Positions 3,283-5,130 of a stretch of 7,265 nt of DNA are shown here, piece after piece (the stretch's first letter is position 1; the number at the start of each line of letters is the position of its first letter). The position numbers were made by a program, and so were the translations under genes. Source of the DNA: an uncultured Collinsella sp. (GTDB lineage Bacteria; Actinomycetota; Coriobacteriia; Coriobacteriales; Coriobacteriaceae). Below the pieces are notes generated by a model that saw nothing but the letters and a program-made list of their open reading frames with translations, was not told the origin of the DNA and did no database searches. Location of the stretch: contig CAJLAN010000079.1 of NCBI GenBank assembly GCA_905204635.1, forward strand, positions 1 through 7,265, given 5' to 3'.

Positions 3283-3450
3283 CTGTCCCACAGTAGCGCG
3301 GAGTTCACGCAAAGCGCGAACCAGCGACTGGGACCAGCGGCCCTTTCGGCCAAGTCCATTTCAGCAAAGGAACCCTGCCAGCAAGCGATGCCCAAGAACC
3401 ACCAGCAACGTCACCGTAGGCCGGGGTCGGGCTTGGTTTTGAAAACATTC
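3283..3450. other. non-coding chromosomal flank between the regulator and the insertion sequence
   Basis: No convincing gene on either strand. Visible structure: a small palindrome ACTGTCCCACAGT at the regulator stop (3282-3294), a weak hairpin with GGCC arms at 3339-3342 and 3348-3351 extended by TGGGAC/GTCCA (3329-3334, 3354-3358) but without a T-tract, several CCAGC motifs, and the palindrome GTTTTGAAAAC (3436-3446). The last bases (ACATTCC, 3445-3451) form the left half of the insertion target. Confidence 0.5.
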
Positions 3451-3455
3451 CACAC

Positions 3456-3464
3456 TGATATTTT
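3456..3464 (+). promoter_or_regulatory. extended -10 element at the left end, half of a circle-junction promoter
   Basis: TGATATTTT contains TG, one base, then TATTTT. In the integrated form the best -35 is TTGAAA at 3439-3444 in the flank, with a short 14-base spacer, so a weak promoter. In a circularised element the right end brings TTGCCA (5014-5019) to exactly 16 bases upstream. Transcription would start near 3470 and produce the bridge RNA. Confidence 0.6.
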
Positions 3465-3474
3465 CTGTATTGAA

Positions 3475-3508
3475 GACGTCGATGATGCACCCGTATACCA
3501 TTGACGTC
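3475..3508 (+). other. 5' stem-loop of the bridge RNA
   Basis: GACGTCGATG (3475-3484) pairs with CATTGACGTC (3499-3508), ten pairs including one G-U, around a 14-base loop. It stands a few bases after the predicted transcription start, where IS110 bridge RNAs carry their first hairpin. Confidence 0.65.
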
Positions 3509-3521
3509 GACACCATCAGAT

Positions 3522-3600
3522 GCGGACCGCGCGGTGACCCCACATTCCGCTGGCGCCCACAGGGCTGCCCTCGTTTCCTGACATGTCCCGCGCGGGCCGC
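3522..3600 (+). other. target-binding loop of the bridge RNA
   Basis: The basal stem is 3522-3534 with 3588-3600: four pairs, one A-G mismatch, then CCGCGCGG with CCGCGCGG. The apical stem is 3552-3558 with 3562-3569 (seven pairs, one bulged base at 3566, loop ACA). The internal loop between them holds the left target guide ACATTCCG (3542-3549), identical to the rejoined target, and the right target guide TCCTGAC (3576-3582), reverse complement of GTCAGGA at 5029-5035. Confidence 0.72.
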
Positions 3601-3605
3601 GGCGA

Positions 3606-3709
3606 GCCGAGACCGCCGCATGACCTAATAGGAGCATGGAGCGATACCGCGGACCCGAACAACCGCATTCTATCGCGCCCCGTCAGTGTGCCGTCTGCCC
3701 GGTCCAGGC
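3606..3709 (+). other. donor-binding loop of the bridge RNA
   Basis: The left donor guide AATAGGAGCA (3627-3636) equals the circle junction read from the right end. The right donor guide TCAGTGTGC (3683-3691) is the reverse complement of GCACACTGA across the same junction. Between them, GCGATA (3641-3646) pairs with TATCGC (3671-3676), extended by GG/CC after a mismatch, and GCGG (3649-3652) pairs with CCGC (3663-3666). The basal stem is less certain: GACCG (3611-3615) with CGGTC (3700-3704) and GCC (3606-3608) with GGC (3707-3709), in competition with a local hairpin GCGGCG/CGCCGC at 3599-3619. Confidence 0.65.
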
Positions 3710-3723
3710 GAGCACGGAAAGAA

Positions 3724-3728
3724 CGGAG
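3724..3728 (+). promoter_or_regulatory. ribosome binding site fixing the transposase start at 3735
   Basis: CGGAG lies six bases before the ATG at 3735. The same frame is open back to an ATG at 3636, but there AGGAG sits one base from the ATG, too close to work, and that ATG overlaps the left donor guide of the bridge RNA. The 33 extra residues resemble no transposase N terminus. Confidence 0.65.
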
Positions 3729-3734
3729 CGAGAC

Positions 3735-5024
3735 ATGAGAACCGAATCGACACCCGGCGCCCGCGGGCCGGTCTTCTGCGGGGTCGACACCCACGCCGAC
3801 TCGCACTGGCTGTGCGTCCTGGACTGGAGGGGCCGCAAGGTCCTGTCCCGCCAGTTCCCCGCCGACGCGGCGGGCTACGAGGCGCTCGCCGGGGCGATCG
3901 CGGCGGCCGGGGAGCCGGCCTGCGTCGCGATGGAGGGGACGTCGTCCTACGGGGCGGGCCTCACCAGGCACCTCGCGTCGCTGGGGATGCCCGTGCGCGA
4001 GGCGCTCTCCCCGGCGAGGACGCAGAGGAGGCGCCCGGGGCAGGGGAAGTGCGACGAGGCGGACGCGGAGAGGGCCGCCCGCGCGGCGATGTCCGGCTCA
4101 GGGCTCGGGACCCCCAAGAGCCAGGACGGGTGGGTCGACGGGGTGCGCTGCATGCTCGCGGCGCGCTCCGGGGCGGTGAAGGCGCGGACCTCGGCGATCA
4201 ACACCGCGAGGTCGCTGCTCACCACCGCGCCGGAAGGGCTCAGGTCGAGGTTCCGCGGCATGGGAGGGCCGAGGCTGATGGAGGAGCTCCCCTCCGTGCG
4301 CGCCGAGGGCGCGCTGGGCGCCGCGCTCGGCGCGCTGGCGGACCTGTGGGCGGCGGCGCGCGACGCGGCGCTCGACATGGAGCTCGCGATCGAGGCGTCC
4401 CTGGAGGAGAACTGCCCCGCGCTGCTGGCGATGTACGGGTGCGGGCCCGTGAGCGCGGCCAAGCTCGCGGTCGCGGCCGGGGACAACCCGGGCAGGCTGC
4501 GCTCCGAGGCGTCGTTCGCGGCGATATGCGGCGCCTGCCCCATCCCCGCCTCGAGCGGCAAGACCGTGAGGCACAGGCTCAACAGGGGCGGCGACCGGCA
4601 GGCGAACAGCGCGCTGCACGAGATCGCGAGGCAGAGGGTCATGCGCGACCCCGAGACCGCCGAGTACGCCGAGAGGGCCAGGGGGCGGGGAAAGAGCGAC
4701 AGGGAGGTCATGAGGTGCCTCAAGCGCTACGTGGCCAGGGAGGCGTACCGGGCGCTGATGCGCCCGCACGAGATCAGGAGGCCCGAGGACGCCTCGGAGC
4801 TCGTGGCGGCCAGGCGCGCGGCGAAGGTCAGCCAGGTGAGGGCGGCGTCCATACTGGGCACCAGCGAGAAGTACATCTCGATGCTGGAGAGGGGCCAAAG
4901 GGAGCTCAAGCCCATAAGGAGGGCCTACGAGGCATGGGTCGAGGCCGGACTTCCGCTCGATTGGGACAGGCAGGCCTTCGAGGCCGAGCGCAAAATGGAT
5001 TCTAAAAAACACCTTGCCAAATAG
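3735..5024 (+). CDS. IS110-family transposase (bridge-RNA-guided recombinase) with C-terminal XRE-type HTH
   Basis: A 429-residue protein. The N-terminal RuvC-like DEDD domain shows Asp18 (GVDTH), Glu67 (AMEGTSSYG), Asp107 and Asp110 (KCDEADAE), matching IS621 Asp11, Glu60, Asp102 and Asp105 in spacing. A helical middle (about 130-225) leads to the Tnp domain from about 230 (MYGCGPVSAAKL), with the catalytic serine in IPASSGKT, probably Ser274 (or Ser273). The family recombines a circular donor with target DNA under bridge-RNA guidance, combining DEDD and serine chemistry. Residues 355-400 add a Cro/XRE-like helix-turn-helix (VSQVRAASILG, then SEKYISMLERGQR), which most IS110 proteins lack. 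The stop codon lies inside the right-end donor sequence (5020-5028). Arginine is mostly AGG, unlike CGC/CGT in neighbouring genes. All catalytic residues are present, so the element looks potentially active. Confidence 0.9.
   Translation: MRTESTPGARGPVFCGVDTHADSHWLCVLDWRGRKVLSRQFPADAAGYEALAGAIAAAGEPACVAMEGTSSYGAGLTRHLASLGMPVREALSPARTQRRRPGQGKCDEADAERAARAAMSGSGLGTPKSQDGWVDGVRCMLAARSGAVKARTSAINTARSLLTTAPEGLRSRFRGMGGPRLMEELPSVRAEGALGAALGALADLWAAARDAALDMELAIEASLEENCPALLAMYGCGPVSAAKLAVAAGDNPGRLRSEASFAAICGACPIPASSGKTVRHRLNRGGDRQANSALHEIARQRVMRDPETAEYAERARGRGKSDREVMRCLKRYVAREAYRALMRPHEIRRPEDASELVAARRAAKVSQVRAASILGTSEKYISMLERGQRELKPIRRAYEAWVEAGLPLDWDRQAFEAERKMDSKKHLAK
5014..5019 (+). promoter_or_regulatory. 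outward-facing -35 element at the right end (circle-junction promoter)
   Basis: TTGCCA, one mismatch from TTGACA, faces out of the element. On circularisation it lies 9 + 7 = 16 bases before TATTTT at 3459-3464. In the integrated form it could only promote into the flank, where no matching -10 is seen before the terminator. Confidence 0.55.
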
Positions 5025-5037
5025 GAGCGTCAGGACG

Positions 5038-5078
5038 AAGGAACCCCCGCCGCACGTAGTGCGCAGCGGGGGTTCCTT
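5038..5078. terminator. nifJ: bidirectional hairpin terminator between the insertion sequence and nifJ
   Basis: AAGGAACCCCCGC (5038-5050) pairs perfectly with GCGGGGGTTCCTT (5066-5078); inside it CGCAC (5051-5055) pairs with GTGCG (5059-5063) around a GTA loop, leaving a two-base bulge (5064-5065). No long T-tract follows on either strand, only TTCCTTC. It lies 53 bases past the nifJ stop on the minus strand and in the original layout would also end the plus-strand regulator transcript. By the guide matches it lies outside the insertion sequence. Confidence 0.78.
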
Positions 5079-5130
5079 CATGTCCGAGGACGTCCGCGAA
5101 GGTCAGCCCTCAGATCCTGCGGTGGGAGAC

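What the first reader, a model, noticed from the sequence alone, without database searches (positions are those of the whole stretch)
3470..3712. A complete bridge RNA with all four guides readable in the IS110 leader
Seen directly: the leader holds ACATTCC (3542-3548), also at the left flank (3445-3451); TCCTGAC (3576-3582), reverse complement of GTCAGGA in the right flank (5029-5035); AATAGGAGC (3627-3635), also at the right end (5020-5028); and TCAGTGTG (3683-3690), reverse complement of CACACTGA at the left end (3451-3458). Order and strand sense are those of left target, right target, left donor and right donor guides. When flanks and ends are rejoined, three matches lengthen: the left target guide by one base, the left donor guide by one and the right donor guide by one. 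Each guide pair sits on opposite sides of a drawn internal loop. One short match could be chance; four in the right order, orientation and structural setting are hard to explain otherwise.
Basis: partly seen in the sequence, partly recalled or inferred. Interest (0 to 1): 0.93.

Follow-up and report, generated by a model that had tools for sequence, protein, structure and literature searches.

The report
Bridge RNA of a Collinsella IS110
A mobile DNA element found in the gut bacterium Collinsella has, just ahead of its recombinase gene, a conserved leader with short segments that match both the element's own ends and its landing sites; the leader is predicted to make a guide ("bridge") RNA that would steer insertion, which is a known kind of system, here in a branch that likely exchanges strands at one shared base instead of two.

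Summary
The four matches are in the sequence at the stated coordinates, and the bridge-RNA reading holds. Support: orthologous empty sites for both flanks (20 of 20 and 19 of 30 loci read); 11 left and 13 right junctions of near-identical copies; 13 relatives whose leaders carry other guides that follow their own flanks (LTG 111 of 126 bases; best of 20,000 permutations 86; register-free control). A covariance model built from 10 relatives without the window finds 3517-3706 at 123.8 bits, next best 8.4.

The claimed RTG is RTG (TCCTG, 3576-3580) plus a handshake guide (AC) for the element's own GT (5029-5030); the claimed RDG is RDG (TCAGTG) plus a handshake guide (TG) for target bases 3451-3452. 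The "lengthened" matches come from the misplaced ends.

Variant features: in 8 of 10 elements readable on both sides only one base (C) is shared at the crossover; the left donor guide matches 3 nt farther from the core than in IS621; the recombinase has an HTH-like tail. The window's two flanks belong to different loci (rearranged or mis-assembled copy). Transcription and activity are untested.

The parts
3417..3452 (.). left flank: outer arm of a palindromic repeat next to an iron-dependent-repressor-like gene, ending in the left target ACATTCCA (3445-3452)
   Evidence: empty orthologous sites; gene by Pfam
3453..3454 (.). left copy of the core CA (C at 3453 is the base shared by donor and target in this branch)
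   Evidence: comparison of filled and empty sites
3455..3458 (+). right donor CTGA, start of the element
3459..3464 (+). predicted -10 box TATTTT, 17 bp from the -35 box of the right end when the ends are joined
3471..3706 (+). predicted bridge RNA; 5' end inferred from the -10 box, 3' end unknown; covariance-model match covers 3517-3706
3475..3508 (+). predicted 5' stem-loop
   Evidence: single-sequence fold
3542..3550 (+). left target guide (LTG) ACATTCCGC
3576..3580 (+). right target guide (RTG) TCCTG, complementary to CAGGA (5031-5035)
3581..3582 (+). predicted target-loop handshake guide AC, complementary to donor GT (5029-5030)
   Evidence: model from PMC11208158 passages
3627..3635 (+). 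left donor guide (LDG) AATAGGAGC
   Evidence: conserved, so permutation is uninformative
3683..3688 (+). right donor guide (RDG) TCAGTG, complementary to CACTGA (3453-3458)
3689..3690 (+). predicted donor-loop handshake guide TG, complementary to target CA (3451-3452)
   Evidence: model from PMC11208158 passages
3735..5024 (+). IS110-family recombinase, 429 aa (PF01548, PF02371, NF033542)
4806..4913 (+). HTH_3-like stretch (aa 358-393) in the C-terminal extension
   Evidence: 20.7 bits, below the cut-off of 23; relative B above cut-off (26.7)
5014..5019 (+). predicted -35 box TTGCCA of the promoter formed across the joined ends
5020..5028 (+). left donor AATAGGAGC; overlaps the recombinase stop codon (5022-5024)
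5029..5030 (+). last two bases of the element (GT), donor positions 6-7
   Evidence: absent from empty sites
5031..5032 (.). right copy of the core CA
5033..5097 (.). right flank: right target GGA, then a terminator-like inverted repeat (by eye) beside a pyruvate:ferredoxin oxidoreductase gene
   Evidence: gene by Pfam

Best explanation
This is an IS110-family insertion sequence of Collinsella type whose leader (about 3471-3706) is predicted to be transcribed as a bridge RNA, with one loop that matches the target site and one that matches the element's own ends, so that the RNA would hold both DNAs for the recombinase encoded next to it. Shown by sequence comparison: the ends, the target (TCC[G/A]-CA-G in a palindromic repeat), two conserved loops, four guides, and co-variation of the target guides, the right donor guide and both handshake guides with the flanks across 14 elements. 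Inferred: excision to a circle that joins a -35 box in the right end to a -10 box in the left end and so drives the RNA; pairing of LTG and RTG with the two target strands and of LDG and RDG with the two donor strands; cutting and exchange at the shared C; and the handshake guides (3581-3582, 3689-3690) catching the incoming strand of the other DNA after exchange.
For: Empty and filled sites fix the ends. Own guides against own flanks in 14 elements (13 relatives and the window): LTG 111 of 126, RTG 55 of 60, RDG 77 of 78, each reached by 0 of 20,000 permutations; handshake guides 19 of 20 (reached by 5) and 22 of 26 (reached by 0); register-free version 0 of 20,000 for left target, right junction and right-donor junction. 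Guides fall in the same columns of an alignment made without flanks, except LTG of L144, two columns off. 16 of 25 consensus pairs have compensatory changes; 94.2% of cells pair against 34.0-44.5% for slid partners. Held-out model finds the window at 123.8 bits, E 4.5e-25, next match 8.4 bits. Promoter-like boxes across the joined ends in 10 of 10 elements.
Against: No expression or activity data. LDG is so conserved that permutation says nothing (85 of 99 own, permutation mean 83.8, reached by 5,204; register-free 16,839 of 20,000). The LDG match ends two bases before the core C, unlike IS621. L005's right junction does not fit; L002 and L018 have extra bases at the left junction. Guide registers were picked by eye; L142 was left out as a weaker fit, L132 and L143 because the left end could not be read. 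The window itself differs from LTG at one base (3452), and its two flanks belong to two different loci. No Rfam family matches.
Confidence: 0.92

Rival explanations
1. The leader is a structured untranslated region that only controls translation of the recombinase; the matches to ends and flanks are chance or a by-product of shared ancestry.
For: The leader sits directly upstream of the gene; the LDG match alone cannot be told from shared ancestry.
Against: LTG, RTG and RDG follow their own flanks against permutation, register-free too; the four window matches together were not reached in 3,000 shuffles.
Confidence: 0.03
2. The bridge RNA is real, but the exchange uses an ordinary two-base core (CA) as in IS621, and differing second bases are mismatches settled later.
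For: IS621 and relatives use a dinucleotide core (PMC11208160 and PMC11208158, passages); in the window's element both DNAs carry CA.
Against: In 8 of 10 elements readable on both sides the second base differs between the junctions; the right one is the base read by RTG in 10 of 10 and the left one the base read by RDG in the 9 where RDG was read. In group B, 7 of 7 left junctions have CA and 8 of 8 right junctions CG. A random settling of mismatches would mix them.
Confidence: 0.35
3. The element ends where the reader put them (3451/3452 and 5028), and RTG and RDG pair with target and donor over their full 7-8 bases.
For: The match lengths are longest that way.
Against: GT is absent from the empty sites, and the extra RDG bases match only the window's flank variant (and L002), not the usual junction.
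Confidence: 0.02

Closest known systems
IS621 of E. coli and its bridge RNA (PMC11208160, outline, passages, sections 12 and 21; PMC11208158, passages)
   Same: Upstream bridge RNA with target- and donor-binding loops, guide order and strand sense, handshake guides after RTG and RDG, promoter formed across the joined ends, palindromic extragenic repeats as targets.
   Different: Core is CA in the window and only C is shared in 8 of 10 elements readable on both sides, instead of CT; LDG match ends at donor position 5 instead of 8; RDG match is a contiguous 6 nt; HTH-like C-terminal extension.
ISCro4 recombinase (PDB 9t56)
   Same: The only solved chain matched by sequence at E up to 0.001 (4.5e-05).
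   Different: Distant; its chain has 341 aa, the window's protein 429.
seekRNA of ISEc21 and the IS1111 type (PMC11187229, passages)
   Same: RNA from the non-coding region upstream of the gene in the IS110 type; insertion without target duplication.
   Different: IS1111 members carry the RNA downstream of the gene; here it is upstream.
IS elements that insert in REP sequences (PMC1525189, listing only)
   Same: Insertion into repeated extragenic palindromes.
   Different: Here the repeats are the terminator-like palindromes of Collinsella.

Membership tests
IS110 family, IS110 group | DEDD (RuvC-like) domain PF01548 and Tnp domain PF02371 | tested here: met
   77.9 and 63.2 bits, above cut-offs; NF033542 164.9 bits against 140
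IS110 family, IS110 group | Long non-coding left end with the bridge RNA, short right end | tested here: met
   282 nt from 3453 to 3734 against 6 nt from 5025 to 5030; RNA model match 3517-3706
IS110 family, IS110 group | Scarless insertion at a specific target | tested here: met
   Filled against empty sites share only the core; L002, L005, L018 deviate
IS110 family, IS110 group | Guides that pair with target and donor | tested here: met
   by sequence only
IS110 family, IS110 group | Circular intermediate with a promoter across the joined ends | tested here: inconclusive
   Promoter-like boxes found; the circle itself not testable
IS110 family, IS110 group | RNA expressed and bound by the recombinase | not testable with these tools
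   Needs an experiment
IS621-like elements with CT core | CT dinucleotide shared by donor and target | tested here: not met
   CA at both ends of the window; only C shared in 8 of 10 elements
IS621-like elements with CT core | Handshake guides 3' of RTG and RDG | tested here: met
   19 of 20 and 22 of 26 bases
IS1111 group | Bridge RNA in the right end | tested here: not met
   Right end has 6 non-coding nt and the RNA model match is upstream
IS1111 group | Sub-terminal inverted repeats of 7-17 bp | not tested
   No search was made

The most novel reading that the evidence does not exclude
A Coriobacteriia branch of HTH-tailed IS110 elements recombines over a single shared base: donor and target are free to differ at the second core position, each is read separately by its own right guide, the left donor guide is moved three bases away from the core, and the two handshake guides do the work that an identical dinucleotide core does in IS621.
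Probability: 0.4. Interest if true: 0.62.

Novelty: new variant of a known kind. Interest (0 to 1): 0.5.

Why it matters
It gives a natural family in which target guides, the right donor guide and both handshake guides can be read against ends fixed by empty sites, and so tests in nature the handshake step proposed for IS621. If the one-base core is real, such recombinases would have a looser demand on the target than IS621, which bears on how programmable bridge recombinases can be.

Tried and rejected
Rejected: my own early idea, in the first notebook entry, that the window had lost two bases at its left end; the empty sites showed a G/A variant instead. Set aside: the 462-aa frame from 3636 as the protein; relatives align from 3735, and 3636 lies inside the donor loop.

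Led nowhere: own-genome search (no genome held); patterns for an empty site with GTCAGG after ACATTCC (0 of 4 genomes, 0 of 43), which failed because GT is not target sequence; Rfam (no match); PMC13174815 on Eggerthella lenta (passages), where bridge recombinases appear only in the reference list. Paper search for IS110 together with Collinsella: 1 paper, by its title about gut microbiomes of herdsmen (listing). I made no search of the literature for one-base cores as such; searches are the nearest.

Rows dropped: of 30 class-level loci L117-L146, 13 were used. Left out: close relatives or siblings of a used element (L118, L123, L124, L135, L140), copies of the window's element (L125, L138), loci whose match lacks the start of the gene (L119, L130, L137, L139, L141, L145, L146), L142 (weaker fit by eye), L132 and L143 (left end not readable). 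One search scored at most 4 candidates per genome and 30 loci were fetched. In one search, junctions with the same first letters as one already listed were dropped (for example right ends of L009 and L034).

Full report
Observation. All four matches are at the stated places. The gene at 3735-5024 is an IS110-family recombinase. In 3,000 dinucleotide shuffles of the leader none reached the sum of the four observed matches, although the right-junction match alone was reached by 316 and the left-target match by 85.

Where the element ends. A genome scan found 12 loci with the recombinase or part of it, all in Collinsella records, eleven of them at 98-100% identity in the best segment and one (L006) at 81%. 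Eleven copies with a left end, the window included, show the same guides in 10 (the 11th, L021, is cut by a contig end) and different flanks. Searching 43 Collinsella genomes with each flank gave orthologous loci without the element. Left flank: 31 genomes matched; the 20 best loci all read AAAACA(T/C/A)TCC(G/A)CAG. Right flank: 43 genomes matched; of 30 loci fetched, 19 have a readable empty site with TCCGCAG(G/A)ACGAAAG and 11 do not; several of the latter have other sequence on the left. In the listed matches to these sites the match begins at query base 3 or later; the two rows that begin at base 1 lie directly behind filled copies in G004 and G005. So filled sites read TCC(G/A)-CA-CTGATA on the left and AATAGGAGCGT-CA-G on the right; GT is element, CA is common. 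The window differs from the usual left junction by A for G at 3452.

The window's flanks. The left flank adjoins an iron-dependent-repressor-like gene and the right flank a pyruvate:ferredoxin oxidoreductase gene. In the other genomes these are two separate sites. The two arms of the window do not match each other (14 of 25, background level), nor do those of L002 (16 of 25), whereas those of L001, L006, L034 and L038 do (21, 24, 25, 25 of 25). The window copy is therefore either the product of recombination between two copies or an assembly join; I could not tell which. It means that left and right target in the window need not come from one insertion.

What the copies say about targets. Of 11 left junctions, read by eye, three match LTG in 9 of 9 bases (L003, L034, L051), six in 8 of 9 (window, L001, L006, L021, L028, L038), L018 has one extra T, and L002 has two extra bases after an otherwise full match. 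Of 13 right junctions, eight read CAGGACG, three CAGACCAG, one CAGCACG, and L005 does not fit. RTG (complement CAGGA) thus fits eight in full and four in part. The motif ACATTCCRCAGNNC occurs 104 times in 37 of 43 genomes against 2 for the reversed control.

Relatives. A search of 396 genomes of the class (Coriobacteriia) gave 48 with matches at E up to 1e-20. Fourteen elements, the window included, had leaders and at least a left junction that I could read. Own guides against own flanks: LTG 111 of 126 bases (permutation mean 49.2, maximum 86), RTG 55 of 60 (27.8, 51), RDG 77 of 78 (61.6, 75), each reached by 0 of 20,000 permutations; target-loop handshake guide 19 of 20 (12.6; reached by 5); donor-loop handshake guide 22 of 26 (9.7; reached by 0); LDG 85 of 99 (83.8; reached by 5,204, so uninformative). 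Guide registers were picked by eye. Two checks: a test without register, best match anywhere in the leader, gives 0 of 20,000 for left target (112 against mean 89.4), right junction (74 against 60.3) and right-donor junction (106 against 88.3), and no signal for the left donor (78 against 78.4; 16,839); and an alignment of 11 leaders made without flanks puts the guides in the same columns, except LTG of L144, two columns off. Compensatory examples: RDG TCAGTG with CACTGA, TCGGTG with CACCGA, TCACTG with CAGTGA; LDG and right end both with AGAAGC in L144. Some of the 14 are related to each other, so they are not fully independent.

Handshake guides. In IS621 the two bases 3' of RTG pair with donor positions 6-7 and the two bases 3' of RDG with target positions 6-7 after strand exchange (PMC11208158, passages). 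The window has AC after RTG and GT at donor 6-7; TG after RDG and CA at target 6-7. In the common target variant (CG at 6-7) the second pair would be G-U.

RNA. RNAalifold on the 11 leaders gives 25 pairs, 16 with a change on both sides; 94.2% of cells pair, against 34.0-44.5% for slid partners, and 0 of 500 shuffles reach any of the five measures. A model from 10 relatives without the window finds 3517-3706 at 123.8 bits, the next match 8.4 bits on the other strand of the same place. In 65 genomes of the family it matches in 9 (15 matches), all of them genomes in which the recombinase search also matched. Joined ends place a -35-like box 16-18 bp from a -10-like box in 10 of 10 elements; by my simple score the circle beats both integrated junctions in 9 and ties with one in L117 (no shuffled control).

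Core. In 8 of 10 elements readable on both sides, the base after the shared C differs between left junction (A) and right junction (G or T); the right one is read by RTG in 10 of 10, the left one by RDG in the 9 where RDG was read. For group B, 7 of 7 left junctions have CA and 8 of 8 right junctions C followed by GGTTT, and all but 8 of the listed rows for the B-like site (a capped list; 39 of 43 genomes match) read CTACCTG-C-GGTTTT. So only C is common there. In the window's own element both DNAs have CA. IS621 is described with a CT dinucleotide in all four pairings (PMC11208160, passages); in its structure LDG reaches the partner of core position 8 (PMC11208158, passages), whereas here the LDG match ends at donor position 5. 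Whether other IS110 elements in the published sets share this I could not check; figures are not held.

Protein. The recombinase has a C-terminal HTH_3-like stretch, below cut-off in the window and above it in relative B; a third relative, L121, has an HTH_31 match below cut-off. The closest protein cluster in the big search, 98% identical, stands for 14,171 member sequences.

Verdict. The finding is right in substance and corrected in detail: a new variant of a known kind of system. Transcription, binding and activity remain inferred.

Noticed in passing
window 3417-3452 and 5031-5115: The two flanks come from two different loci in other Collinsella genomes, and their repeat arms do not match each other; L002 shows the same. 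Either recombination between copies or assembly joins.
   Followed up: partly
window 5031-5115; L057-L076, L087-L105: A family of intergenic palindromes in Collinsella: a terminator-like hairpin between long inverted arms, many copies per genome; the insertion target lies at the inner end of the left arm.
   Followed up: partly
window 4806-4913; L040, L121: HTH-like C-terminal extension on the IS110 recombinase; role unknown, perhaps autoregulation or nucleic-acid contact (guess).
   Followed up: partly
L006, L028, L034, L038: Decayed copies that keep both ends: foreign sequence inside the gene in L006, L028 and L038, an internal deletion in L034.
   Followed up: partly
L030 (L118), left end: The left end is duplicated in tandem, giving two copies of the -10 region.
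   Followed up: no
for example G005:C1 and L162-L173: The group B target CTACCTGCGGTTTT is itself a frequent repeat in Collinsella genomes (39 of 43 match the pattern).
   Followed up: no
L005 547 onward: A right junction that lacks the usual GTCAG and the terminator-like hairpin and runs straight into the distal repeat arm, as if deleted.
   Followed up: no
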